From an uncultured Victivallales bacterium (GTDB lineage: Bacteria > Verrucomicrobiota > Lentisphaeria > Victivallales > UBA1829), in assembly GCA_944390795.1 (NCBI GenBank), contig CALXRI010000007.1, positions 62,001-126,000 of the forward strand: a stretch of DNA of 64,000 nt, given 5' to 3'. Positions 2 through 47,637 of the stretch are shown here, piece after piece (within the stretch, counting starts at the first letter, position 1; each line of letters opens with the position of its first letter). Below the pieces are notes generated by a model, which saw nothing but the letters and a program-made list of their open reading frames with translations, searched no databases and was not told the origin of the DNA. The position numbers were made by a program, and so were the translations under genes.

Positions 2-673
2 GGCAATCATGTCTTTCAGGATGAATATCTCCGCGGACACAATTTCCAATATGTTCCGGACGATCTCGGAGCCGAACGCATCCGCCGCTTCGGCATTTCC
101 CTGCTGACGACGGATGCGGTCTATCCGGAACTCTTTGACTCCTTCCGCAAAAGTTCGCCCCGAAAAGCCGGGGAATATTTCGACGCCTACCGCAGGGCCT
201 TCCGCAACGGCTTCAATATCAAGCATCTGACGGATTACACTTATCTGATCGTCAATGACGCTATGGATGAGGAGCAGTCGGCCGAGGAAGTAAGGAAATC
301 CATGCATCAGGCGATCGCGGAAGGCCGTTTCCTCACCCGGTGGCATGACATTCACCGTTTTGAAAATTTTCTGCCAGGCACCTGGCTGGAAGCCCAGATT
401 CTGGCATGGCTGGAAATGCGGGAGCAGCCCGTATGGCTGGAAAACTGGAAGGGAATGCGGATTCTGGACGCGGTCTGGCATGCTTCCGGAAAGAAAGCGG
501 TGATCCGCCTGGAAAAAAGTGAGGACATCCCCATGCTTCTACGGATTGGAGTCCGCAGTTTTGATTTTGCAGCGGATCTGGACGGCAGACCTGTTCCATT
601 CCGGCAGGACTCTCTGAACGGCGCGGCGGAAATCCCGATCCCGGGCGCAGGAACATTGACTCTCTCTTTCTGA
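2..673 (+). CDS. C-terminal part of a gene of unknown function (5' end outside window)
   Basis: The frame is open from the left edge and closes with TGA, giving 223 visible residues; an ATG at 263 lies inside it and is not the start, because the upstream codons read as good protein in the same frame. The visible part is soluble, with no membrane segment, and is rich in aromatic and charged residues (clusters of Trp/Glu in the middle). It ends in a short beta-rich stretch of the kind often found at the C-terminus of carbohydrate-active proteins. I do not recognise a family and assign no function. It converges on recD, with 263 bp between them. Confidence 0.7.
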   Translation, partial: GNHVFQDEYLRGHNFQYVPDDLGAERIRRFGISLLTTDAVYPELFDSFRKSSPRKAGEYFDAYRRAFRNGFNIKHLTDYTYLIVNDAMDEEQSAEEVRKSMHQAIAEGRFLTRWHDIHRFENFLPGTWLEAQILAWLEMREQPVWLENWKGMRILDAVWHASGKKAVIRLEKSEDIPMLLRIGVRSFDFAADLDGRPVPFRQDSLNGAAEIPIPGAGTLTLSF

Positions 674-35620: not shown

Positions 35621-36502
35621 TCACGGCTTCATCAGTTCCTCGAATGTCCGGCAGAGTTTTGCTATGGAAACGCGCTGAGACATGACGTTGGTCTCATTCT
35701 GCATGCTCCTGATGCGCGGACACTGTTTCAAGGCGGGAATCAGCTTCTTCCAGTCGACCGTCCCCGTGCCGGGGAGGTGATGCTCGTCCGCATATCCGCT
35801 GTTGTCATGAAGGTGACATGTCACGATATGCGGAGCGAGTTTTCCGAACGCATCCGGCTCCTGCACGACCCCGCTTTTCCAGCAGAGGTTCATGTAAGAC
35901 GCGTATTTTGCGGGATCTTTGCCGGGAGTCTTCGCCATGACGTTCGCATGTCCGGCATCAAAGCAGCAGCCGAGAACCGGCGTATTGAAATAATCCAGGA
36001 AATAAAGCACCTCGTCCGGGGTGTTGAAAGGTTCGAAACTGTTTTCCAGAGCGATGACTATTCCGAGCGCCTCCGCCGCCGGAATCAGTTTCTCGAGAGA
36101 ATCGACGGCCAGCGCGCGCATTTCTTCAAGCGTGGTGTTCTTGTAGTAGCAGTCATAGGCGCCGATGTGCATCACATAGGAACGGCAGCCGAGGTCGGAA
36201 GCATACGCCATGCAGAGTTTGTGATCCTCAATCATCGCACTCCGCCGGGGCCGGTCCGTAATGTTCAGATCCCAGGCGGTGCCCCAGAGTCCGTGACACT
36301 CGAATATCTTCATGCCGCTTTCCCGGAGCCAGCCGAGCAGCGTGGTGTAAAATCCTGGCTCCTGCACAAGGCGCTTTCCCCATGAAGTCTCCAGGACGAC
36401 GTTCTCCGCGCCGTTGTCGGAAAATTCGCTCAGGATGTTGACGATGAAATCATCGCTGATTTTCCCCCAGGGGAAAAAGTGTGACAGGGGAATCGTTTTC
36501 AT
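35621..36502 (-). CDS. Xylose-isomerase-like TIM-barrel protein, paralogue of 20746-21627
   Basis: 293 residues from MKTIPLSHFFPWG, whose ATG has GGAGG nine bases upstream and overlaps the histidine-kinase stop. It has the same length and the same four metal-site motifs as the paralogue: Glu in ALENS, FDAGH, CHLHDN, and QNETN. It shares the HGLWGTAWD and LPGTGTVDW segments as well. The fold suggests metal-dependent isomerisation or epimerisation of a sugar-like compound. It is the last gene of a long minus-strand string and is co-transcribed with a sensor kinase, an unusual pairing. The substrate is unknown. Confidence 0.85.
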   Translation of the reverse strand: MKTIPLSHFFPWGKISDDFIVNILSEFSDNGAENVVLETSWGKRLVQEPGFYTTLLGWLRESGMKIFECHGLWGTAWDLNITDRPRRSAMIEDHKLCMAYASDLGCRSYVMHIGAYDCYYKNTTLEEMRALAVDSLEKLIPAAEALGIVIALENSFEPFNTPDEVLYFLDYFNTPVLGCCFDAGHANVMAKTPGKDPAKYASYMNLCWKSGVVQEPDAFGKLAPHIVTCHLHDNSGYADEHHLPGTGTVDWKKLIPALKQCPRIRSMQNETNVMSQRVSIAKLCRTFEELMKP

Positions 36503-38469
36503 GAATCTTGTCCTCCATTGTTGTCTGAAACCTGCTCTACAGGCAGAATTACATCGAAAGCGGCGCCCCGCCGGGGCAGGTTGCCGCACTGAAGCCAGCC
36601 ATTATGGGCCAGAATGGTCCCGTATGCCATGGCAAGCCCCATGCCGGTTCCCTTTCCGACAGGTTTGGTTGTGAAAAAGGGTTCGAAGACCCGGGATTTC
36701 ACGGCGGGATCAATGCCGGTCCCGGTATCCTCAATCCGGATGACGCACAGCTTCCGCGCCGGGTCCGGTGTCACTTCGGAAGGAGGGTCAAGCGCAATTC
36801 CCAGCGCATGCGGATCGCCGATCCGGATCGTGAGAATCTGCTCCTCGCTCTCCGCATTGCCCTGCATTGCGTCCTTGGCGTTGATCATCAGGTTGAGAAG
36901 CGTCTGCTGCAGCTGAATCGCGTCGCCGCGTACGATGTATCTCCTCCCGTCGTCAAAAATCCGGAACGTGATGCCGGACTGCGTCCCCGGGAGAAAAAGA
37001 TCCGCGCACTTGTCCACAAGACCGCGCACATCCACGTCGGCGTTCTGGTAGTTTCCCTTCCTCGCAAAGCTGAGCATCTGCGAAGTCAGCGTTCCGGCAA
37101 GTTCCGTGATATGGTCGATTTTATCCAGATTGCGCCGGACATCCTCGTCCTCGACGTCATGCATGTAGCGGATAATGTCAAGATGCCCCTGAATGGCATG
37201 CAGATAGTTGTTGAAGTCATGCGCGATTCCTCCCGCAAGACGGCCGATTGCCTCGAGACGCTGCCTGTGCGACAGCTGGGAATGCCATTCCTCCCGTTCC
37301 CGCTCCAGCTTCCGGCGTTCCGTCACATCGCGTCCGAAGGTGATCAGAAGCGGCGCGTTTTCAAACGGAATCATTGTGATGGACAGCTCCAGCTCCGTCT
37401 CCTTTTCCGGAACGATGATGGAGCAGGAAACGGATAAATCCTCCGCGGTGCGCACAACTCCGGAGTCGGAATTCTGTTCCAGAAGATGACGCCAGACCTC
37501 CGGATTCAATCCGGCAACCTCTTCGAAGGAATGATTGATGACCGCCGAAAAGGTGTCCGCTCCGAGCATTTTGAGCGCCGCGCGGTTTGCATCGATCACC
37601 CAGCCGTTTTCATTCATGATGACAATCATGTCGCTGGCATTCTGCACCAGCATCCGGTAGCGCTCCTGCGATTCCCGGAGATTCTGCTCCAGCTTGAGCG
37701 CGCGTCCGTATCCGCCGAAAAATGCGAGAATGATGTCCAGCGTGCGCCGTGACTCTCCCGGATTCTCATGCGTGATCCTGGAAAGATAGATCGTCGTCGG
37801 AACGCTCAGGATCAATACGAAAATCGCACGGGCGAAATAGGACGAAGTGAGTTGTTCCCACCATGCGGAAGTTCCCCAGTAGGCAATCGTCACGAACACG
37901 ATATGATCGATCAGCTGGATCAGCAGCAGCGAGCCCGTCACTGTGACATACAGCCGGCAGCGGAAATTCAGCAGGCGCTGAAAGAAAATCGGAAGCAGGA
38001 AAAGGTCGAACGTCAGTGAAATCACCGTCGCAGCCATCATCCGCAGACTGGCGGAAAGAAGAAACCCGAAGGATTCCGTTACAATGCTCTGCGGCATCGT
38101 ATATCCCGGCCAGGTGGTCTGCACCAGGGTAATCGAGGCAAGATAAGCGTAAAATCCGAGCGACGCCATGACGCCGATGATCAGACGCTGGGCCGCAAGT
38201 GTGCCGTCCGTCAGGTAAACCACCACGAGAAGCGCCAGAAACGGCAGGAAAAGAACCGAAGAGGAAAGAGAAAAATCCAGTCCCTGATAACCGATCAGCA
38301 TCCGGAGCCCGGAGGCCCCCGTCAGCTGAGTGAAGACAAGAAGAACGCCGGCGGCAATGTAAAATGGCGTCGAACCGAGAACCTTGCGCAGACCGTGAAG
38401 AATCAGCAGTCCTGCGAGGATGAACGTCATCTCCAGAAGAGTGAGACAGCATCCGTAAAAAATTTCCAC
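36499..38469 (-). CDS. Membrane sensor histidine kinase with PAS domain
   Basis: 656 residues starting with GTG. Residues 1-235 contain seven or eight membrane helices and form an integral-membrane sensor, not a periplasmic loop sensor. A PAS domain follows (about 265-385, LVQNASDMIVIMNENGWVIDANRAAL), then the kinase core: H-box GGIAHDFNN with His417, N-box LNLMINAKDAM, G1 DTGTGID, and G2 GTGMGLA. All residues needed for autophosphorylation are present. No receiver domain is fused and no response regulator gene is nearby, so it is an orphan kinase. The gene follows mcsB by 33 bp and overlaps the TIM-barrel gene by four bases. Confidence 0.9.
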   Translation of the reverse strand: MEIFYGCCLTLLEMTFILAGLLILHGLRKVLGSTPFYIAAGVLLVFTQLTGASGLRMLIGYQGLDFSLSSSVLFLPFLALLVVVYLTDGTLAAQRLIIGVMASLGFYAYLASITLVQTTWPGYTMPQSIVTESFGFLLSASLRMMAATVISLTFDLFLLPIFFQRLLNFRCRLYVTVTGSLLLIQLIDHIVFVTIAYWGTSAWWEQLTSSYFARAIFVLILSVPTTIYLSRITHENPGESRRTLDIILAFFGGYGRALKLEQNLRESQERYRMLVQNASDMIVIMNENGWVIDANRAALKMLGADTFSAVINHSFEEVAGLNPEVWRHLLEQNSDSGVVRTAEDLSVSCSIIVPEKETELELSITMIPFENAPLLITFGRDVTERRKLEREREEWHSQLSHRQRLEAIGRLAGGIAHDFNNYLHAIQGHLDIIRYMHDVEDEDVRRNLDKIDHITELAGTLTSQMLSFARKGNYQNADVDVRGLVDKCADLFLPGTQSGITFRIFDDGRRYIVRGDAIQLQQTLLNLMINAKDAMQGNAESEEQILTIRIGDPHALGIALDPPSEVTPDPARKLCVIRIEDTGTGIDPAVKSRVFEPFFTTKPVGKGTGMGLAMAYGTILAHNGWLQCGNLPRRGAAFDVILPVEQVSDNNGGQDS

Positions 38470-38502: not shown

Positions 38503-39567
38503 TCATTCCTGCAGGAATTTCCGCAGAAGCGCGGCGCGCGCGACGTCGCGGCCGTCCTGATCCAGTTCCCGTCCTTCGTATTTCTGGAGATGCGCGGCCT
38601 GCACCAGAAGAAACAGTTCATTGACCGTGTGAATGTTCACGGAGCGGAACATGTTCAGGTCGACGCCGAGCCGCAGCGCGGAAAGAGAATTGAGCGACTC
38701 GTCACCGGAAATGATGTAGGAGTGTTTCAGCAGTCCGTAGGCACGCCCGATATGATTCATCAGATAGTTCTGACGGTTCGCAAGGAGAAGCGCGCGCGCC
38801 TTTTTTTCATGGGCGATGATCTGCGCAATCACCGACGTGAGACGGCGGATGATCTGCTCTTCGCTTTCCCCGAGCGTGCTCTGATTGGAAATCTGGTAGA
38901 GATTGCCCAGCGTCTGACTGCCTTCCCCGTAGAAACCGCGCGCCGCCAGTCCGAGCTTGTTGACACCCTGTACAACGGCCTGCACCTGATTTGTCAGGAC
39001 AAGCCCCGGAAGATGGAGCATCACGGAAGCGCGCAGTCCGGTTCCAAGATTCGTCGGACAGGATGTCAGATAGCCGAAGGTCTTGTCAAAGGCGAACGGC
39101 AGTTCCATGGAAAGTTCATCGTCCAGCAGGCTGATCCTCCGCCAGATTTCATTCAGCTGAAATCCCGGGGCAAGCACCTGAAGACGCAGATGATCCTCCT
39201 CATTGACCATCACAAACACCCCCTGCCCGCGGTTCGTCACCAGCCCCGCGCCGCGGCGGGGATTCAGAAACTCCCGACTGATGAGGTGGCGTTCCAGCAG
39301 AAACCGGCGGTCCAGTTCGGAAAGCTCGTCCACCTTGAACTCGCAGGTTTCCGTCTCCTTCATGGAATCCGCACGCTCCAGCACGCCGAACACCGAATCG
39401 CGGACAGCCGTCAGCGAAACGTCGTCGGAACGGACGGGAAACGGCTCGCCGGAAAGATTGCGCGCAAGACGGATGCGGCTGCTGATGGCAATGTCATCTT
39501 CGGGACCGTTGTCCATCAGCCAGCAGACAGGCTGGCGGAAAAGCGCGTCGATCCGTTCATTCGCCAT
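38503..39567 (-). CDS. mcsB: Protein-arginine kinase McsB
   Basis: 354 residues from MANERIDALF, with AAGGAG seven bases upstream. It shows the bacterial phosphagen-kinase-like pattern: ISSRIRLARNL near residue 30, the CPTNLGTGLRAS block with the catalytic Cys, and IGRAYGLLKHSYIISGDESLN towards the end. McsB phosphorylates arginines on proteins, marking them for ClpC/ClpP degradation in Firmicutes. It overlaps mcsA by 11 bp, the usual pair. ctsR and clpC, the usual Firmicutes neighbours, are absent. Here the pair sits between a CDC123-like gene and a histidine kinase. Confidence 0.92.
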   Translation of the reverse strand: MANERIDALFRQPVCWLMDNGPEDDIAISSRIRLARNLSGEPFPVRSDDVSLTAVRDSVFGVLERADSMKETETCEFKVDELSELDRRFLLERHLISREFLNPRRGAGLVTNRGQGVFVMVNEEDHLRLQVLAPGFQLNEIWRRISLLDDELSMELPFAFDKTFGYLTSCPTNLGTGLRASVMLHLPGLVLTNQVQAVVQGVNKLGLAARGFYGEGSQTLGNLYQISNQSTLGESEEQIIRRLTSVIAQIIAHEKKARALLLANRQNYLMNHIGRAYGLLKHSYIISGDESLNSLSALRLGVDLNMFRSVNIHTVNELFLLVQAAHLQKYEGRELDQDGRDVARAALLRKFLQE

Positions 39568-40132
39568 TGCCCTTCTCCTTTCCCTCCCCTTCAAGCGCCC
39601 TCTTCAGCTCCTGAATCCTGTCCCGCAGGACGGCTGCCTCCTCGTATTCCTCGTTCCGGATCCGGATCTCCAGTTCCTGCTGGCAGGCGGCAATTTTCCT
39701 GCGGAGTGCGACCTTTTCAATCACATCCTCGGTCCGATGGTCCGTTTCATGATTGCAGGGCGTCTTCCCGAGATGCGTCAGACCTCGGTGCATATTTTCC
39801 AGGACACCGGACAGCACTTCGGAAAACACCAGGTAGCATTCGGGACAGCCGAGACGACCGGTTTTGCGGAAACGCTCCGTATCCCAGCCGCAGGCGGCGC
39901 ATTTCACGGACGGGGCAGCGGACGTCTCCTCGGCTCCGCCCGCGTTTTCCTGCCCGTTTTCATTGGTGAAATTGTAGAGCATTTCAGCAAGGTTGAAGCT
40001 CTGCAGAATCGGTTCCGTTTCCGCATTTTTCGCGGCGCACTCCGCGCAGAGGTGAAACACCTTCTTTTCACCGTTGATGATCTCCTGGACATGAATTGTG
40101 GCGGGATTCTTGTTGCAGATCTGACACAGCAT
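39557..40132 (-). CDS. mcsA: McsA, zinc-finger activator of McsB
   Basis: 191 residues. Four CxxC pairs are seen at Cys3/6, 29/32, 78/81 and 96/99, matching the two zinc fingers of McsA. The C-terminus is a UVR motif (about 145-185; NEEYEEAAVLRDRI). In Firmicutes McsA binds and activates McsB and links it to ClpC. It overlaps mcsB and follows the CDC123-like gene by 26 bp. Confidence 0.92.
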   Translation of the reverse strand: MLCQICNKNPATIHVQEIINGEKKVFHLCAECAAKNAETEPILQSFNLAEMLYNFTNENGQENAGGAEETSAAPSVKCAACGWDTERFRKTGRLGCPECYLVFSEVLSGVLENMHRGLTHLGKTPCNHETDHRTEDVIEKVALRRKIAACQQELEIRIRNEEYEEAAVLRDRIQELKRALEGEGKEKGNGE

Positions 40133-40158: not shown

Positions 40159-40887
40159 TCAGAATGACACGTTCACATCCCCGCTGAGCGTGCGGGGCGG
40201 CGGGACGATGAAACAGCCCGAAGTGCCGTTCCAGTCACGGTCCCAGCTGCCGAGCATCAACGGATCGGTCGGGGGACCCCAGGGGTTGATGTCGACAATC
40301 AGGATCTTCCCGCCTGCCGTGAAATAGATGTCCATCGCGCAGTCACGCTGATCGAGAACCGGCGCGATTTCATTCACGAACTTTTCCGCTTTCGACCAGT
40401 AGGTTTTCCGGAGCTCCACCAGACGCCGGAAATGGCGGATGAGCCAATACTGGCTCATTGCCTGCAGTTTTCCGCCGCGGATGAAAAGCCGGAACTCGCG
40501 CGTCACATCCATCCGGCGGAAAGGACGGACGCAGATCCGGGAAACACACCCGGATTCGGCGGCGGAACGCACTTTCGAGCTTTCCGCGAGCACCGCCCAT
40601 GCGCTTCCGGCGGAACTGACCGCGCCGCGTTTCCGGAGAAAACGCTCCGTGTCGGTCGGAGCGGCGGCATCAACGGAAACAAAACGCATCCCGCTGAACG
40701 TGCGGAGCGCAAGACTCAGGCGCGGCAGAAGGGCCCCGACCACATCGCCCTTCGTCTCGCCGGCGGCAAGCGCAGCAATCTCAGGAGCCTTCAAACTCAG
40801 AAACACTGCGGGAAAACTGTAGGAGGACAACTTCGGATACCAATCCTGCATGCGGTAGAAATCGTAGTTTTTTACAATAAATCCCAT
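40159..40887 (-). CDS. CDC123/D123-family ATP-grasp protein
   Basis: 242 residues. Three blocks match the D123 family of which eukaryotic Cdc123 is the type: an N-terminal WYPKLSSYSFPAVFLSL; a middle VRPFRRMDVTREFRLFIRGGKLQAMSQY, where the family has 'R.W..i....EFRcFV....l..isQ'; and a C-terminal DIYFTAGGKILIVDINPWGPPTDPLML, where the family has Asp...Asp-x-Asn-Pro and 'TDsLLF'. The last block supplies the metal/ATP acidic residues of an ATP-grasp fold. Eukaryotic Cdc123 is an assembly factor for initiation factor eIF2; bacterial members are barely studied and predicted to be peptide or protein ligases. Here it lies between a membrane protein and mcsA, downstream of def and gltX. Target unknown. 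Confidence 0.72.
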   Translation of the reverse strand: MGFIVKNYDFYRMQDWYPKLSSYSFPAVFLSLKAPEIAALAAGETKGDVVGALLPRLSLALRTFSGMRFVSVDAAAPTDTERFLRKRGAVSSAGSAWAVLAESSKVRSAAESGCVSRICVRPFRRMDVTREFRLFIRGGKLQAMSQYWLIRHFRRLVELRKTYWSKAEKFVNEIAPVLDQRDCAMDIYFTAGGKILIVDINPWGPPTDPLMLGSWDRDWNGTSGCFIVPPPRTLSGDVNVSF

Positions 40888-40910: not shown

Positions 40911-41861
40911 TTAAAACAGATCCCCGTCATCCTTCCGCGGCGGATTCAGCTGTTTCTGCACTCGGCTGAACACTATCAGATGATAGAGGAAAAATGCAAT
41001 GAAGAACACCGTCTGGAAACTCAGGAACGGCAGCGCCATTCCGGAAAAAAGAGATGCGACAATCAGCGGAGGAAATGCCGCATACAGCGTAAGAATCAGG
41101 ACGGTCCGGAACCCCATTTTCCGCTCCGCGCCGTTCACGGACCAGAAATACTGCGCCAGCGCGAAAAAAAGCACGGAGAAAAAACCGAGCAGCAGCATTC
41201 CGAAAAATGCCATGGAAAAAATCACAACCGCCACGCCGGAGATCATCTGTCCTGCGACAAGAGCGGGATTATCCACGGAAAAGCCGTCCGGCCACAGAGC
41301 AAGATCTTCCATTCTTTCTCCGTTTTTCAGGCTGAAACGACCTGCAAGATACGTCCCGAGTTCCTCCCGGGAAGCAACCAGTTTCATCAGCGGGATTTCC
41401 TGCGCCAGACGTCCGTCAAGCAGAGTGTTCATCACCATGTACTGCTCCTGCGCCGTGCCGGACGCATTCCGGAACCATGTCACGATTGCACGGTCAAGCA
41501 GAACAATTCCGTAATCGGAATCCCATTTCCGCGTTGCGGACGGCTGAAAGGACGAACCAGGAAAATAATCAAAGCGCATCCGGGGATTCAGAATATAGCT
41601 CTGCGCCTTTTCGGGATTTTTCAGCAGGCGGATTCCGGCGTCCCGCGAGATCTTCACTCCGCCGATCTGCTCGAACAGCACATTGCAGACACGCCGGATC
41701 TCCCTGCCGAGAAACCAGGCGTTCGCCGAGGCAAGACAAACGGACAGAAGAAAGATCAGAAGAACAAAGTGAAAAAGAGCCCGCCAGACGGAACGGTTCA
41801 TCAGCTGAAGAAAAACCGTCGTTCCGGTGCAGACCTGAAACACTGTTCTGAAAAAATTCAT
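40911..41861 (-). CDS. Integral membrane protein, possibly DUF1189-like
   Basis: 316 residues. One N-terminal membrane helix (about 27-47) precedes an extracytoplasmic domain of about 150 residues, and four hydrophobic segments follow near 205-300. This N-helix/soluble domain/C-terminal helical bundle layout, plus the amphipathic FLQLMNRSVWRALFHF start, resembles DUF1189 proteins, but I see no diagnostic motif. It begins four bases after the def stop and ends 23 bp before the CDC123-like gene, so it is certainly in the operon. No function can be assigned. Confidence 0.8.
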   Translation of the reverse strand: MNFFRTVFQVCTGTTVFLQLMNRSVWRALFHFVLLIFLLSVCLASANAWFLGREIRRVCNVLFEQIGGVKISRDAGIRLLKNPEKAQSYILNPRMRFDYFPGSSFQPSATRKWDSDYGIVLLDRAIVTWFRNASGTAQEQYMVMNTLLDGRLAQEIPLMKLVASREELGTYLAGRFSLKNGERMEDLALWPDGFSVDNPALVAGQMISGVAVVIFSMAFFGMLLLGFFSVLFFALAQYFWSVNGAERKMGFRTVLILTLYAAFPPLIVASLFSGMALPFLSFQTVFFIAFFLYHLIVFSRVQKQLNPPRKDDGDLF

Positions 41862-41865
41862 CGTC

Positions 41866-42480
41866 TCAGGAAACCAGTCGTTTGATGCTGTAATGTCTGT
41901 TTCCGGATTTCCGGATGATCTTTTCCAGAGCGGGAAGAATCTCCTCGAAATCCGGGGATTTCACACGCTGGACAAATACCACGCCCTCCAGATGATCGAG
42001 CTCGTGCTGAAGCGCGCGCGCCAGAAGTCCGCCGCAGTCCAGATGAAGGGGGGGACCGTCCAGAATCTGCGCCCTGAGCACCACGGAAACGGGCCGCTCC
42101 ACTGGCGCATATATTTTCGGAACGCTCAGGCAGCCCTCCTCGCGCGTCTCCAGCGCGGGGGAAAAGGAAACGATCTCGGGATTGATGAGAACTACCGGCA
42201 TCCTGTGGCAGAGTTCCGCTTCGCCGGGAGAGAGCGGCATGATGACATTGCCCGCCTTGTCCGTCGGCGGATCGACATGCAGCGCCACAATCCGCAGCGG
42301 CACTCCCACCTGTGTAGCGGCAAGCCCGATGCCGTCTTTGGCATACATCGTCTCAATCAGTTTTTTCCCGAAATCGCGGATCTCATCGTCGATGCGCTGC
42401 ACCATCTTCGCCTTCGCATGCAGCACGTTGTCGCCGAGAGTCCGGACCGTCAGAATTTTCTTTTTTCCGATATTGAGCAT
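41866..42480 (-). CDS. def: Peptide deformylase
   Basis: 204 residues from MLNIGKKKIL, chosen because GGAGG lies eight bases upstream; a longer frame reaches into gltX. All three catalytic motifs are intact: GIGLAATQVG (from 50), EGCLS (115-119) and HELDH (159-163), which hold the metal Cys and two His and the catalytic Glu. It removes formyl from nascent protein N-termini. It is 16 bp after gltX and four before the membrane-protein gene, within a translation/modification-flavoured operon. Confidence 0.95.
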   Translation of the reverse strand: MLNIGKKKILTVRTLGDNVLHAKAKMVQRIDDEIRDFGKKLIETMYAKDGIGLAATQVGVPLRIVALHVDPPTDKAGNVIMPLSPGEAELCHRMPVVLINPEIVSFSPALETREEGCLSVPKIYAPVERPVSVVLRAQILDGPPLHLDCGGLLARALQHELDHLEGVVFVQRVKSPDFEEILPALEKIIRKSGNRHYSIKRLVS

Positions 42481-42496
42481 TTCCCTATCCTCCATC

Positions 42497-44089
42497 TCAG
42501 CTCGCGGAGCCGAGGGCAAGGGTTTTCCGGATTCTGGACGCGCAGTCCCCCGTTCCGATCACGGCGGCCGTTTCATACATGCTCCCGCCGACCGTCACTC
42601 CGGTCACGGCGACCCGCAGCGGCTGATTGAGCCTGCATGCCCCCATGCCATGCGCGGACTCGACTTCGCGCAGCGTCTGTTCAACCTCCGTTTCATTCAT
42701 CGACGGCTTCCGTTCAAAAATATCGGCAAGCGCGGCAAGCGCCGTCCTTGTCGTTTCGTCGGAAAGCAGCTTGCGGAATCCCTTCGGATCATATTCGAGT
42801 TCGCCGCAGAAGAAGTATTTCCACGCGTTCACGTCCTGATAGGTTTTCGTGCGGGTCTGCATCAGCGCGGCGACCTTGGAGAAAAGTTCCCGGGAAGCGG
42901 ACGCGCGCCACTCCCAGCGTCCGGCAAAATCCCAAGCCTCGGATTCGAAGCGTGCAAGCGGCATTTCCGCCAGATACATTCCGTTCATGTTCACAAGCTT
43001 GACAAGGTCGAACTGCGCGGGAGAACGCTGTGCGCGGTCGATGGAAAACGCCTCGACCAGCTCCTGTCTCGTCATTTTCTCACGGTTGTCGCCGGGCGAC
43101 CATCCGAGCAGCGAAAGATAGTTGAAGAGAGCTTCCGGCAGAAATCCCTTTTCCCGGAAATCGCCCACAAACGCGTCGCCGTCGCGTTTGCTGTACGGCT
43201 TGCCGGAGGCGTTCACCAGCATCGGCAGATGCGCATAGGTCGGCGGCGTGAATCCAAGCGCCTGAAACAGGAACAGATGGCGGTATGTGTTCTCCACATG
43301 ATCGTCGCCCCGCACGATATGAGTCACACGCTGCGTCACGTCGTCGCAGACGTTCGCCAGATGGAAGACAGGACTGCCGTCGCTGCGGATGATGACCAGA
43401 TCCTTGATTCCGTCGAGCGGTTTCGCCAGATCCCCTTTCACGAGATCATGGAAAAACACCTCGCGTCGCAAGAACTCGAACGCGGCGGCCCCCGCAATCA
43501 CCTTGGGTTCGACAAGCGCCTCAATCTCGCGGATGTTGGAAGCGTCAAGCGTGAAAATCACATTTCCTGCGCCATCAAAAACCCTCAGGTCCTTGAAACC
43601 GGCAAGCCCGGCTGCATTTTCGACGGTTTTCCCCTTGTGGTTGACCACGGACCAGGTCAGCCCCGCGCGGGAAATCGAGAACGGCGCATCCACCGCCAGT
43701 TCCGTGCGGACGCGTCCGCAGGCGCGTACAAAGGGAAAGGAATCGCAGTCATAAGGCAGACGGAACAGCACAGGGGAACCGGGTTGTCCGGGATTGAGTT
43801 CATAAGCGCATCCTCTGGCGACCAGATCGCGCGCAGCCTGCTTGTGGTGCTCACTCTGCGAAGTCTGGTACATCACTTCGCCGTCATAATCAAGCCCGAG
43901 CCATTTCATGCACTCGAACAGGGCGTCGATCGCCTGTTTCGTGGAACGCTCCAGATCGGTATCCTCGATGCGGAGCAGGAACTCCCCCCCGCAATGGCGT
44001 GTGTAAAGCCAGTTGAAAATTGCGGTTCTGATATTGCCGATATGAACCTGTCCCGTGGGGGACGGCGCGAATCTGGCCCTGAAATCCAT
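42497..44089 (-). CDS. gltX: Glutamyl-tRNA synthetase
   Basis: 530 residues from MDFRARFAPSP, whose ATG has AAGGAG seven bases upstream. Class I motifs are present: HIGN (HIGH) at residues 16-19, and SKRDG (KMSKS) in GKPYSKRDGD. The region between about residues 98 and 215, where most GluRS have a compact zinc-binding or zinc-like segment (CYC...CRH), is here longer and unlike the usual sequence and has no zinc motif. The C-terminal anticodon domain appears present. It charges tRNA-Glu; a discriminating or non-discriminating form cannot be told. It is the first gene of the eight-gene string running to 35621. Confidence 0.93.
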   Translation of the reverse strand: MDFRARFAPSPTGQVHIGNIRTAIFNWLYTRHCGGEFLLRIEDTDLERSTKQAIDALFECMKWLGLDYDGEVMYQTSQSEHHKQAARDLVARGCAYELNPGQPGSPVLFRLPYDCDSFPFVRACGRVRTELAVDAPFSISRAGLTWSVVNHKGKTVENAAGLAGFKDLRVFDGAGNVIFTLDASNIREIEALVEPKVIAGAAAFEFLRREVFFHDLVKGDLAKPLDGIKDLVIIRSDGSPVFHLANVCDDVTQRVTHIVRGDDHVENTYRHLFLFQALGFTPPTYAHLPMLVNASGKPYSKRDGDAFVGDFREKGFLPEALFNYLSLLGWSPGDNREKMTRQELVEAFSIDRAQRSPAQFDLVKLVNMNGMYLAEMPLARFESEAWDFAGRWEWRASASRELFSKVAALMQTRTKTYQDVNAWKYFFCGELEYDPKGFRKLLSDETTRTALAALADIFERKPSMNETEVEQTLREVESAHGMGACRLNQPLRVAVTGVTVGGSMYETAAVIGTGDCASRIRKTLALGSAS

Positions 44090-44114
44090 CGTATTGCTCC
44101 TTAAAATAAAGTAT

Positions 44115-44141
44115 GCGCAAAAGTCCGAAGTGCTTTTGCGC
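44115..44141. terminator. Hairpin between tolC and gltX
   Basis: Perfect 9-bp stem GCGCAAAAG / CTTTTGCGC with a 9-nt loop. On the minus strand it is followed by a T-rich stretch (ATACTTTATTTT), so it probably terminates the TolC-family transcript about 85 bp past its stop, 26 bp before the gltX start. It may partly read through into gltX. Confidence 0.55.
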
Positions 44142-44225
44142 GCTGCATAAAGACAATTTCTGAAAATGAACTCTTTTCCGGAAGCCGCGAAAAAAACGCC
44201 GCGGGACATTCCGGAATGCAGACGG

Positions 44226-45638
44226 TCAGTATTCGCCTGTCGCCGCCATCAGCTGAGCCTTGGCGTTGTGCATGTTGATGACATAGGTCGCAAGAGAGGT
44301 TTCCGCGTCGACCAGGTCGCGCTGCGCCTCGTTCAGACGGGTCAGCTCGGTATTCCCGGCACGGTATTCCTCCTCGACAAGGTCACGGATCTTCCGGTAG
44401 AGTTCCAGACTTTTCTGGGAGATCTTGACCTGCTTCAGACATGTCAGATAGTTGTCATATGCGGTTCGGACTTCGGCGACAACGGTGATCCACGTATTTG
44501 CCAGCGAGTAGTCGCTCTGAAGCATCGCGGCCTGGAAGCGCCGCATGTTGAAGAATGTTTCACCGCCGCTGAACAGCTCCCAGGAGACATTCCCTCCGTA
44601 ACTGAAGTAAAAGGTTTCGCTTTTATTGGTGCGGCTGCGGGAATCGTCATACGCCTTGATGCGGCTCTGACCGACATTATAGCCGATGTTCGCATTCAGG
44701 GAGACGGTCGGCCCGAAGGAGCAGATGGATCCCCAGTAATTGTATTTGGCGACTTCAAGCGCCTCGCGGTATGCCTTCAGGTCGGGACGGCTCGCCAGGG
44801 CGGTGTCCAGATAAACGGCGAGACTGGAGAGAACCTCGCCGTCGGGCGACGGCACACCGGGGAACTGCACTTCCTCGTGAATCGTCCCTTCGGTCAGCCC
44901 CATCAGCTGGGCAAGCGCGTATTTGGAGGCGGCAAGCTGATACTGCGCGGCATACAGGTCGGATTCCGCGGAGTTGTAATAGGCCTTGAAGTTGAGCACA
45001 TCGCTCAGAGGAACGGCACCGACTTCGAACTTCAGTTCGTTTTCCTTCAACTGGGAATTCTGAAATCTCATGTTTTCCCTGGCGATCATGATTTTGGCAT
45101 TCGCCAGCAGGATGTCGTTGTAAGCGTAGGCGACGGTTCGCACAAGAATGCGGCGGGCGTCGAGTTCCAGCGCCTCGCTCTGCTTCCAGTTGTGACGGGC
45201 GGCGAGAAGGTTCATCTCCCGGACAAAAGAGTCGAAGAGCAGCCAGTTCGCGGTTGCGCTGGGACCGTTTTCAAACGAGCGGGAGCCGTTCTGGATGTTG
45301 TTGTAAACATTGTTGGGCTCATTGAACGTATGGGTAATGGAATATCCCGCGGTGATGGTCGGCATATAGGGGGCGAACGCCGCGTAATAGGAGGCTCTCG
45401 CGGCGACAACCGCGAAATATTTTGTCTTGAAGTCCGGATTGTTCTGGACCGCAAGGTTCTGGGCATCCTCCAGCGTCAGAAGTTTCTGGCTGATATCCAG
45501 TTTCCTGTGTTCCGAACCGGGAATGCTGGTGAATGCGCTTCTTGAAATCGCCACCGGCGGTTTCGGATACGACGTGCACCCTGAGAGGACAACCAGTCCA
45601 GACAGGGCGAATACCGCTGCAATACGTTTTCTGTCCAT
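44226..45638 (-). CDS. TolC-family outer-membrane efflux lipoprotein
   Basis: 470 residues from MDRKRIAAVF, with AAGGA upstream. The signal peptide ends in lipobox LSGC (Cys20), so it is an outer-membrane lipoprotein like OprM or NodT. The paired long-helix OEP repeats are visible, each starting with LDEALNLA-like text (LTLEDAQNLAVQNNPDFK and the later YLDTALASRPDLKAYREAL). It forms the trimeric exit duct for efflux or secretion. The RND pair at 26.2-30.4 kb is a possible partner but is not adjacent. Confidence 0.92.
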   Translation of the reverse strand: MDRKRIAAVFALSGLVVLSGCTSYPKPPVAISRSAFTSIPGSEHRKLDISQKLLTLEDAQNLAVQNNPDFKTKYFAVVAARASYYAAFAPYMPTITAGYSITHTFNEPNNVYNNIQNGSRSFENGPSATANWLLFDSFVREMNLLAARHNWKQSEALELDARRILVRTVAYAYNDILLANAKIMIARENMRFQNSQLKENELKFEVGAVPLSDVLNFKAYYNSAESDLYAAQYQLAASKYALAQLMGLTEGTIHEEVQFPGVPSPDGEVLSSLAVYLDTALASRPDLKAYREALEVAKYNYWGSICSFGPTVSLNANIGYNVGQSRIKAYDDSRSRTNKSETFYFSYGGNVSWELFSGGETFFNMRRFQAAMLQSDYSLANTWITVVAEVRTAYDNYLTCLKQVKISQKSLELYRKIRDLVEEEYRAGNTELTRLNEAQRDLVDAETSLATYVINMHNAKAQLMAATGEY

Positions 45639-45719
45639 TTCGTAAAATCCTTTAGCCTGTTTATCAAAAGTCCTGCGGCCTGCCCTATGCATTACCCATC
45701 TGTTGTTTTATAAGCAGGT

Positions 45720-45876: not shown

Positions 45877-47637
45877 TCAGACCTCTTTCGTCCGCTCCAG
45901 CTGCCGCCGGAAATCCGCATTGAGTTTCTCCAGGTAGCCGAAACGGGAGCGGATGAAATCCTCCACCGTGCTCTCCGCATAGAAATCCCGGAGGAGAGAA
46001 CGCATTTCCTCCCGGAAAACGGCAAGTTTTTCCGCCAGCGCGGCGGAGTAGCGTTTCATCATGTTCAGGCGGTAATCCGGAATCGCCTTCCCGAGCTGTC
46101 CGTCATAATACTGGAGATAATTGACGATGCGCGTCCGTTCCGCAACCAGGGATTCGGCGGCGGCGGCATACCGCAGGAAATTCAGGCGGCGCACTCCCGG
46201 ATTGACACCCGCAATCCGGTCATAGGAATACGGCGTCTTCCCGATATGAAGAACCGCCTCCGACAAGGCGGGTTCGAGAATTTCGCCGTAAAACAGCAGG
46301 GAGAAATCCCGGATGAACGCATCCAGGCTCTGCGGAATACCGCTCCACATGCTCATGGCGCCATACGCGATCGGAAACCAGGCACTTTCATGAGGTTCCG
46401 CGGGACAGTCCGCCGAAGCGATTCTGGTCCATCCGGTCGCGACCACGCATTCCAGACGGTTTTCGACCGCGCTTTTGGCCCAGGCGTCCAGATTCCGCGC
46501 ACGGATTTCCAGCGGGGGAAGAGAGCCGGCCCAGTTGTCGCATCCGGCAAAACCGCTCGCCCCCCAGACCCTCGCTCCGGAAGCGAGATATTCATGAAGA
46601 TAAGGAAAGACGTTGTTCTTCCCGCCGTAACCGTATGCCCAGTACATGAGCACGGCCTTCTTTCCGAGCTTCCAGCAGGCCTTCGCCTCGGACTCGGAAA
46701 GGTTCCTGTGCAGATTGCGCAGAATATCCTCCCACATGACCGGCGTTCTGCCGTGCGCGATCAGATAATCAATGCATGCCTCGGTTTTCCTGAGATAGGA
46801 GCCGCCTTTCCCCAGTTTTGCGCACTTCCCGCAGCGTCCGAGCAGATCCGTCTCATCCGCGCCGATATGGAAGTATTCCGTGTGCTCGGCGAAACATTCC
46901 ATCAGCTCCGACGCCATGGCCTCCCAGAGCTTCTGTGCGGCAGGCGATGACGCACAGTATTGAAACGGATGACCGTCTTCACGGAGATGCGCATATTTCC
47001 GGTGCTTCAGCAGATAATCCGCATGCGCGAGACACTGGAGCTTCGGCACGATCATGATATTCAGAGAACGGGCATAGCGGCTGAACTCGCGCATCTCCTC
47101 GAAGGTGTAGGCGTCCCTCACCCCGACGCCGGGGGCGCAGCGGTAATTGTATTTGTCTTCCAGTTCCAGCAGGATGGCGTTGATCTTGAGGGAAGCCAGA
47201 ATCCGCATCTCCTCCTTCAGCACAGCAAGCTTCGGCTGATATCCTTTCAGATCCCAGTGGATCATGCGGAGCGGAATGGACGCGTGATCCCGGATCTCCA
47301 TGCACTGTGCGGAGGCCGGGAGCTGCAGCAGTGTCTGAATCCCGTAAAACACACCGCCCGGCGAAGCCGCATCAATGCGGATGCAGTCCTCTGCGACACG
47401 CAGCACATAGGCGTCCGGCTCCCCTCCGGCATCCACCGGAGACATCCCGCGTGTCCCCGCGGTGAATTCCGCGAAAAAACCTTTCCTTCCCCTCACAATT
47501 TTCAAGTTCGGGAAACGTTCTTCGAGGAGCTCCTCCGTTTCCGCATTCACTCCCGCGCACCGGAGTCTGCGCAGGGAGTCCATGCGGCAGACACCGCGGG
47601 CGGGAACCATCTGTTTCACCGGCGGGATCAAGTTCAT
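45877..47637 (-). CDS. Glycoside hydrolase family 20 (beta-N-acetylhexosaminidase-like)
   Basis: 586 residues with no signal peptide, so probably cytoplasmic. An N-terminal GH20b-like alpha/beta domain (to about 118, with SPGGVFYGIQTL) leads into the catalytic barrel. The catalytic pair is Asp261-Glu262 in FHIGADETDLLG, which is the GH20 HxGxDE motif, as needed for substrate-assisted cleavage of N-acetylglucosamine or N-acetylgalactosamine residues. A C-terminal helical region of about 150 residues follows. The ATG overlaps the regulator stop, so the two genes are an operon for using a host or mucin-like amino sugar; that use is inferred. Confidence 0.88.
   Translation of the reverse strand: MNLIPPVKQMVPARGVCRMDSLRRLRCAGVNAETEELLEERFPNLKIVRGRKGFFAEFTAGTRGMSPVDAGGEPDAYVLRVAEDCIRIDAASPGGVFYGIQTLLQLPASAQCMEIRDHASIPLRMIHWDLKGYQPKLAVLKEEMRILASLKINAILLELEDKYNYRCAPGVGVRDAYTFEEMREFSRYARSLNIMIVPKLQCLAHADYLLKHRKYAHLREDGHPFQYCASSPAAQKLWEAMASELMECFAEHTEYFHIGADETDLLGRCGKCAKLGKGGSYLRKTEACIDYLIAHGRTPVMWEDILRNLHRNLSESEAKACWKLGKKAVLMYWAYGYGGKNNVFPYLHEYLASGARVWGASGFAGCDNWAGSLPPLEIRARNLDAWAKSAVENRLECVVATGWTRIASADCPAEPHESAWFPIAYGAMSMWSGIPQSLDAFIRDFSLLFYGEILEPALSEAVLHIGKTPYSYDRIAGVNPGVRRLNFLRYAAAAESLVAERTRIVNYLQYYDGQLGKAIPDYRLNMMKRYSAALAEKLAVFREEMRSLLRDFYAESTVEDFIRSRFGYLEKLNADFRRQLERTKEV

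What the first reader, a model, noticed from the sequence alone, without database searches (positions are those of the whole stretch)
40159..40887. Bacterial homologue of eukaryotic CDC123 (D123 family)
Three family blocks and the ATP/metal Asp and Asn are visible. Eukaryotic CDC123 assembles initiation factor eIF2, which bacteria lack, so the bacterial target must be different. Placement next to McsA is informative.
Basis: partly seen in the sequence, partly recalled or inferred. Interest (0 to 1): 0.6.

Follow-up and report, generated by a model that had tools for sequence, protein, structure and literature searches.

The report
Housekeeping-like bacterial relative of CDC123
A gut-type bacterium carries a relative of the human translation-assembly protein CDC123 as a stable, single-copy gene next to a protein-maturation gene, so this family seems to have an ordinary cellular job in these bacteria and is not limited to the toxin-delivery role proposed before.

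Summary
The ORF at 40159-40887 (minus strand, 242 aa) is a D123/CDC123-family ATP-grasp protein: Pfam D123 E=7e-17, human CDC123 by profile E=1e-21, end-to-end hhalign probability 99.9%. Bacterial CDC123s, including a Lentisphaera one, were reported in 2015 (PMC4431377) and read as T6SS or effector proteins.

mcsA/mcsB adjoin the gene in 7 of 82 loci of the order, all in two genera. The conserved partner is a DUF1189-like membrane protein directly upstream (80 of 82), with peptide deformylase before it (76 of 82).

New to me: (1) it is single-copy and looks vertically inherited (118 of 137 genomes of the order; 136 of 197 of the class); (2) it is not tied to T6SS (marker in 9 of 197 genomes, absent here); (3) this lineage has lost both basic residues that I equate with the R2K signature lysines (0 and 1 of 99 basic) but keeps the Mg-ATP Asp/Asn, ExR and Gln. 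Best guess: an ATP-Mg-binding, chaperone-like housekeeping factor linked to nascent-protein maturation; its client is unknown.

The parts
40159..40887 (-). D123/CDC123-family ATP-grasp protein, 242 aa. Conserved D73, D79, S103xK105, R124, R130, E131-F-R133, Q146, D186, D199xN201, W215, C-terminal GDVxVSF; S71 and T78 where human CDC123 has K104 and R111
40911..41861 (-). DUF1189-like integral membrane protein, 316 aa (N-terminal hydrophobic helix, soluble middle part, further hydrophobic stretches from residue 199); 23 bp upstream of D123; conserved partner in 80 of 82 order loci
41866..42519 (-). peptide deformylase (def), upstream of the DUF1189-like gene in 76 of 82 order loci
42497..44209 (-). 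glutamyl-tRNA synthetase (gltX); matches begin near residue 36-45, so the true start is probably later than this ATG
44226..45692 (-). TolC-like outer membrane efflux protein (OEP)
39557..40132 (-). McsA-like protein, 26 bp downstream of D123; adjacency only in genera g1 and g3
38503..39594 (-). McsB-like protein arginine kinase

Best explanation
The gene encodes a D123-family ATP-grasp protein that is an inherited, single-copy housekeeping gene of this bacterial lineage (Lentisphaeria/Victivallales), the last gene of a conserved def - DUF1189-like - D123 unit. Shown: family membership, end-to-end collinearity with human CDC123 up to about residue 276, retention of the Mg-ATP Asp/Asn, ExR and Gln, loss of the basic residues at the human K104 and R111 positions, conserved upstream neighbours, vertical pattern, and no T6SS link. 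Inferred: it binds ATP-Mg in the usual cleft and uses ATP binding or slow hydrolysis, not ligation, to hold or release a client protein, much as eukaryotic CDC123 acts as an assembly chaperone for eIF2gamma. Because it travels with peptide deformylase and a membrane protein here, and with methionine aminopeptidase and SRP Ffh in another family of the class, the client is most likely a newly made protein or a translation/targeting factor. Family identity and housekeeping status: about 0.95. The chaperone-like, nascent-protein mechanism: about 0.35.
For: Family. Single copy, near-universal in the order: one match per genome in 135 of the 136 matching class genomes (the other, G191, is split over two contigs); 118 of 137 genomes of the order. 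Of the 10 order genomes that lack both D123 and the membrane protein I looked for def in 7: it was found in 2, both near contig ends, so those are probably assembly gaps. Neighbours: DUF1189-like directly upstream in 80 of 82, def in 76 of 82; the two genes overlap in 37 of 80 and are within -110..60 bp in 73 of 80; upstream conserved, downstream not. Vertical. Other family f13: map-ffh-D123 in 6 of 6 loci (families run on L116 only). Active site: D186 99/99, D199 98/99, N201 97/99, E131/R133/Q146 99/99. No T6SS: VipB in 9 of 197 genomes, 0 in own. No phage match, phage family or defence model.
Against: No experiment and no usable structure model. Gene neighbourhood is guilt by association: the def-DUF1189 pair exists without D123, so D123 may simply ride behind def. 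In genus g26 and a few other genomes D123 is absent while def-DUF1189 remains, so D123 is not needed by that pair. Family f6 (L095, L108) carries D123 away from the pair. Outside the order neighbours vary by family, and a deformylase or aminopeptidase lies beside it only in the order and in f13. Loss of the two basic residues could mean a pseudoenzyme without ATP chemistry.
Confidence: 0.4

Rival explanations
1. It is an active peptide or amino-acid ligase: it adds amino acids to a protein or small molecule, as proposed for the R2K clade, with other conserved basic residues (K86 in the order, K105, R124, R130) taking over from the lost pair.
For: The ATP-grasp assemblage with the ExR motif is almost entirely peptide-bond ligases (PMC4431377, parts 1-3 of 6 read); E131-x-R133, D186, D199xN201 kept, K105 in 93 of 99, R124 96 of 99, R130 98 of 99. 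An AMP-forming acyl ligase lies directly downstream in families f13, f16 and f20.
Against: Both signature basic residues are replaced (0 of 99 and 1 of 99 basic). No ligation product is known even for eukaryotic CDC123 (PMC8844851, passages).
Confidence: 0.25
2. A degenerate ATP-binding pseudoenzyme that acts as a scaffold or regulator for the DUF1189-like membrane protein encoded upstream.
For: Tight coupling to that gene in 80 of 82 loci, loss of two phosphate-side residues, conserved C-terminal tail in 84 of 99 by a strict pattern.
Against: Mg-ATP Asp/Asn almost invariant; D123 has no adjacent DUF1189-like gene in any of the 18 loci outside the order, and 9 order genomes have the membrane gene without D123 (in one of these, G190, the contig ends there).
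Confidence: 0.2
3. A T6SS / polymorphic-toxin accessory or injected effector, the published reading of bacterial CDC123.
For: Other bacterial D123 genes do sit in such loci: Sagittula (VgrG-DUF4123-HNH-SMI1/KNR4-D123-PAAR) and Methylobacter (HNH-SMI1-D123).
Against: VipB in 9 of 197 class genomes, not in own; no toxin, immunity or VgrG neighbours recognised among the families that I ran; single copy and vertical.
Confidence: 0.03
4. Part of an McsA-McsB arginine-phosphorylation module.
For: Adjacent, 26 bp gap, same strand in this window.
Against: 7 of 82 order loci only, two genera; McsB in 178 of 197 class genomes, many without D123.
Confidence: 0.03

Closest known systems
Eukaryotic CDC123 (human 8PHD/8PHV; S. 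pombe 4ZGN-4ZGQ), eIF2 assembly chaperone
   Same: Same family; collinear from the N-terminal WY to about human residue 276; Mg-ATP D233/D246/N248, E177xR179 and Q192 kept
   Different: K104 and R111 replaced by S71 and T78; no acidic insert; no C-terminal extension beyond about human 276, instead a short GDVxVSF end; no eIF2 expected in bacteria; neighbours are def and a membrane protein
Bacterial CDC123 of T6SS/polymorphic toxin loci (Burroughs, Zhang, Aravind 2015, PMC4431377)
   Same: Same Pfam family; the paper names a Lentisphaera araneosa homologue, so presence in this lineage was reported
   Different: Four plasmid comparators (Sagittula, Methylobacter, Aneurinibacillus, Sinorhizobium) keep Arg and Lys at the two signature positions; here both are lost. 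No T6SS; single-copy, vertical, beside def
R2K.2 and R2K.3 families (Pfam R2K_2 PF18299, R2K_3 PF14243)
   Same: Weak similarity over the kinase-like half (25.9 and 23.3 bits)
   Different: Below both curated cut-offs while D123 is well above its own

Membership tests
D123 / CDC123 (PF07065) | Score above Pfam's curated cut-off | tested here: met
   61.9 bits against 24; 49 of 49 aligned proteins hit at E<=0.01
D123 / CDC123 (PF07065) | Closest solved relatives are Cdc123 proteins, collinear over the length | tested here: met
ATP-grasp superfamily | Asp in strand 4 and [DE]xN in strand 5 of the kinase-like domain | tested here: met
   D186 99/99, D199 98/99, N201 97/99
ATP-grasp superfamily | ATP-grasp fold | tested here: inconclusive
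   AlphaFold2 on 4 sequences, pLDDT 50.6, not used
R2K clade | Conserved basic residue in strand 2 of RAGNYA (human K104) | tested here: not met
   S71 in the window; 0 of 99 basic
R2K clade | Second Lys/Arg in the following loop (I equate it with human R111; the parts of the paper that I read give no number) | tested here: not met
   T78 in the window; 1 of 99 basic
R2K clade | ExR motif in strand 5 | tested here: met
   E131-x-R133, 99 of 99
Functional CDC123 | Assembles eIF2 via eIF2gamma domain III | not testable with these tools
   no eIF2 expected in bacteria; no interaction data. SelB, a bacterial relative of eIF2gamma (recalled), passes its curated cut-off in only 7 of 197 class genomes, so it cannot be the general client
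T6SS-associated bacterial CDC123 | Gene lies in a T6SS/polymorphic toxin locus | tested here: not met
Legionella-type effector CDC123 | Extended N- and C-terminal regions | tested here: not met
   242 aa, no extension seen; relatives mostly 227-272 aa, two outliers of 145 and 297

The most novel reading that the evidence does not exclude
A bacterial class uses a CDC123 relative as a core, ATP-dependent assembly factor for a translation GTPase or a nascent protein, so the translation-linked chaperone role of CDC123 predates eukaryotes or arose twice, and it does so with a rebuilt ATP site that dispenses with both signature lysines.
Probability: 0.12. Interest if true: 0.85.

Novelty: new variant of a known kind. 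Interest (0 to 1): 0.5.

Why it matters
The only survey of bacterial CDC123 that my searches found treats bacterial members as weapons or effectors and derives eukaryotic CDC123 from such a system (PMC4431377; searches). A stable housekeeping version beside peptide deformylase gives a second possible bacterial context, and one that can be tested genetically. The natural loss of both signature basic residues, with the metal site kept, is also a built-in test of which ATP contacts the CDC123 chaperone function really needs.

Tried and rejected
McsA/McsB partnership: rejected as general. T6SS: rejected for this lineage. SelB as the general client: rejected (7 of 197 over cut-off). Joint loss of D123 and the membrane gene as evidence of coupling: withdrawn, because most of the checked genomes also lack def and look like assembly gaps. 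Phage origin: no tblastn match in 50,697 phage records with one relative (L115) as query, no PHROG, no PADLOC model. AlphaFold2: poor model, so no fold search was made. Whether the acyl ligase seen next to D123 in f13/f16/f20 exists elsewhere in the window's genome was not settled.

Rows left out: L072 (G006), whose D123 is split into two ORFs, is left out of the 99-row counts. G191 (D123 split over two contigs) and 35 other matching order genomes were not fetched: 100 of 136 matching genomes were (82 of 118 of the order, 18 of 18 others). Four named comparators from plasmids were used of six hits. The tree is the 'quick' kind with long comparator branches, so the place of eukaryotic CDC123 is not read from it.

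Full report
OBSERVATION. The ORF at window 40159-40887, minus strand, reads 242 aa from an ATG. It hits Pfam D123 at E=7.4e-17 and 61.9 bits against a cut-off of 24; R2K_2 and R2K_3 are below their cut-offs. phmmer finds human CDC123 8phd at 3.1e-5; a profile of 49 proteins finds human CDC123 at 1.1e-21 and S. pombe Cdc123 at 3.5e-12. hhalign of that profile against six CDC123-type proteins gives probability 99.86 in the local alignment, window 10-227 to human 8-276.

WHERE IT IS. The window is part of G000, a 3.44 Mb, 66-contig genome. Named near relatives (85-91% identical D123) are 'uncultured Lentisphaeria bacterium' and 'uncultured Victivallales bacterium', so I take the order to be Victivallales and the class Lentisphaeria.

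DISTRIBUTION. D123 is found in 51 of 61 genomes of the close-relatives set and 136 of 197 genomes of the class. By the handle tables that is 118 of 137 genomes of the order and 18 of 60 of other orders; no genome of family f21 is among the matches. All but one matching genome have exactly one match; the exception, G191, is split over two contigs. In a phylum sample 74 of 288 match, all within the class; since the class holds 197 of these handles, at least 91 of the 288 are from other classes and none matched. Of 19 order genomes without D123, ten also lack the upstream membrane gene. I checked seven of these ten: deformylase was found in two, both near contig ends, so these look like assembly gaps. 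Nine have the membrane gene without D123. Regions around it show a tRNA nucleotidyltransferase-like gene in the place of D123 in the four genomes of genus g26 (by eye; Pfam run on one of the four), a contig end in G190, and other genes in the rest. So D123 is near-universal in the order but has been lost in places.

NEIGHBOURS. I fetched 100 of the 136 matching loci. In the 82 order loci a DUF1189-like membrane protein lies directly upstream on the same strand in 80, peptide deformylase upstream in 76, and mcsA/mcsB downstream in 7, all in genera g1 and g3 of the window's own family. The two exceptions are family f6 (L095, L108). The membrane gene and D123 overlap in 37 of 80 and lie within -110 to 60 bp in 73 of 80. 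As a control, genes in the 2 kb upstream are shared with a median of 35 of 41 genera (82 loci), those in the 2 kb downstream with a median of 0 and a maximum of 2 (68 loci long enough, 34 genera). D123 is thus the last gene of the conserved unit, and McsA lies in the part where gene order is not kept. McsB is present in 178 of 197 class genomes, including many without D123. The membrane protein matches Pfam DUF1189 in 47 of 57 members at E<=0.05 (best 1.2e-10) and Yip1 in 19 of 57. In the window the E-value is only 0.0048, under the curated cut-off. It evolves fast (median 23% identity), yet stays adjacent.

OTHER ORDERS. None of the 18 loci outside the order has these neighbours. In family f13 (six loci, three genera) D123 follows methionine aminopeptidase and SRP Ffh; in the five loci of g55/g56 it is followed by an AMP-forming acyl-CoA ligase and pdxJ, with an EF-P-like gene further on in g55 (families run on L116). 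The acyl ligase also follows D123 in f16 and f20. Others have DAHP synthase, a LolD-like ATPase plus a lipoprotein-like gene (named by eye), LpxK on the other strand, or UDP-glucose dehydrogenase. The def-DUF1189 pair also occurs without adjacent D123 in f14, f16, f21 and f24, so it is older than, or independent of, the link to D123. Linkage with deformylase in one order and with aminopeptidase plus Ffh in another family hints at nascent-protein maturation, but that is two settings out of about ten and was noticed after the fact.

RESIDUES. Mapping on MAFFT and confirmed by hhalign: human D233, D246, N248, E177, R179, Q192 correspond to D186, D199, N201, E131, R133, Q146; conservation is 99, 98, 97, 99, 99 and 99 of 99. 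Human K104, which the 2015 paper names as the strand-2 lysine, maps to S71: 0 of 99 are basic there. Human R111, which a 2025 paper places near the terminal phosphate of ATP (PMC12860950, passages), maps to T78: 1 of 99 basic. Four other bacterial D123 proteins keep Arg and Lys at these places. That R111 is the second 'R2K' residue is my reading; the paper gives no number in the parts I read. The gap-free stretch GMRFVSVDAAAPTDTERF / GSVFPKLNWSAPRDAYWI is anchored by F, AP and D. A conserved C-terminus, G[DNEK][VI]xV[SKR]F, ends 84 of 99 proteins.

HISTORY. In a 55-row quick tree the 49 class proteins form one group (SH-aLRT 99) and 18 group labels need 19 changes, the least possible being 17. 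This fits vertical inheritance in the class. The branches to eukaryotic and T6SS-type members are long, and I draw nothing from their order.

KNOWN WORK. PMC4431377 (abstract, parts 1-3 of 6 read) defines the R2K clade, lists lentisphaerae among bacterial CDC123 holders and uses a Lentisphaera araneosa protein as a query. It describes bacterial members as T6SS-linked or as possible host-delivered effectors. My plasmid search recovered that type as a control: Sagittula VgrG-DUF4123-HNH-SMI1/KNR4-D123-PAAR and Methylobacter HNH-SMI1-D123. In the class, the T6SS marker VipB is in 9 of 197 genomes and not in G000. Searches of the paper library for CDC123 with ATP-grasp, with Lentisphaer, with bacterial homolog and related terms, for R2K and for D123 returned no other account of lentisphaerial CDC123; most subscription papers are not held there. 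PMC8844851 (passages) states that no CDC123-made modification of eIF2gamma has been detected.

MECHANISM. Shown: family, retained metal-ATP residues, lost basic pair, conserved operon position, vertical single copy. Inferred: ATP-Mg binding, chaperone-like action on a client linked to nascent-protein maturation or translation. I prefer a chaperone reading over a ligase because both signature basic residues are gone and no ligation is known for the eukaryotic relative; the ligase reading remains open because other basic residues (K105, R124, R130) are nearly invariant. SelB is excluded as a general client (7 of 197 over cut-off); EF-Tu and IF2 were not tested.

VERDICT. A real, already recognised family member, but a distinct variant with a housekeeping setting that my searches did not find described. 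The McsA argument should be dropped.

Noticed in passing
window 40911-42519; L168-L173, L176-L178, L180-L183: Peptide deformylase and a DUF1189/Yip1-like membrane protein form a pair across the class, with or without D123; 13 of 16 fetched regions show it.
   Followed up: partly
L116:6653-12569 and L117-L120: map-ffh-D123-acyl-CoA ligase-pdxJ cassette with very short spacing in another family of the class; the acyl ligase also follows D123 in f16 and f20.
   Followed up: partly
window 38503-40132; class-wide: McsB-type arginine kinase in 178 of 197 genomes of this class, far outside the Firmicutes from which it is best known (recalled); copies in f21 and genus g5 score much lower.
   Followed up: no
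window D123 residues 236-242 and relatives: Conserved extreme C-terminus GDVxVSF, lost in family f8 and a few others; may be a docking tail.
   Followed up: partly
L072:6968-7777: D123 of G006 is split into two reading frames; assembly error or a broken gene.
   Followed up: no
L184:1390-5020, L188: Sagittula plasmids carry VgrG-DUF4123-HNH-SMI1-D123-PAAR, the published T6SS setting of bacterial CDC123.
   Followed up: yes
window 45877-47637 and 35621-36589: Glycosyl hydrolase family 20-like gene and a xylose-isomerase-like TIM barrel gene flank the operon.
   Followed up: no
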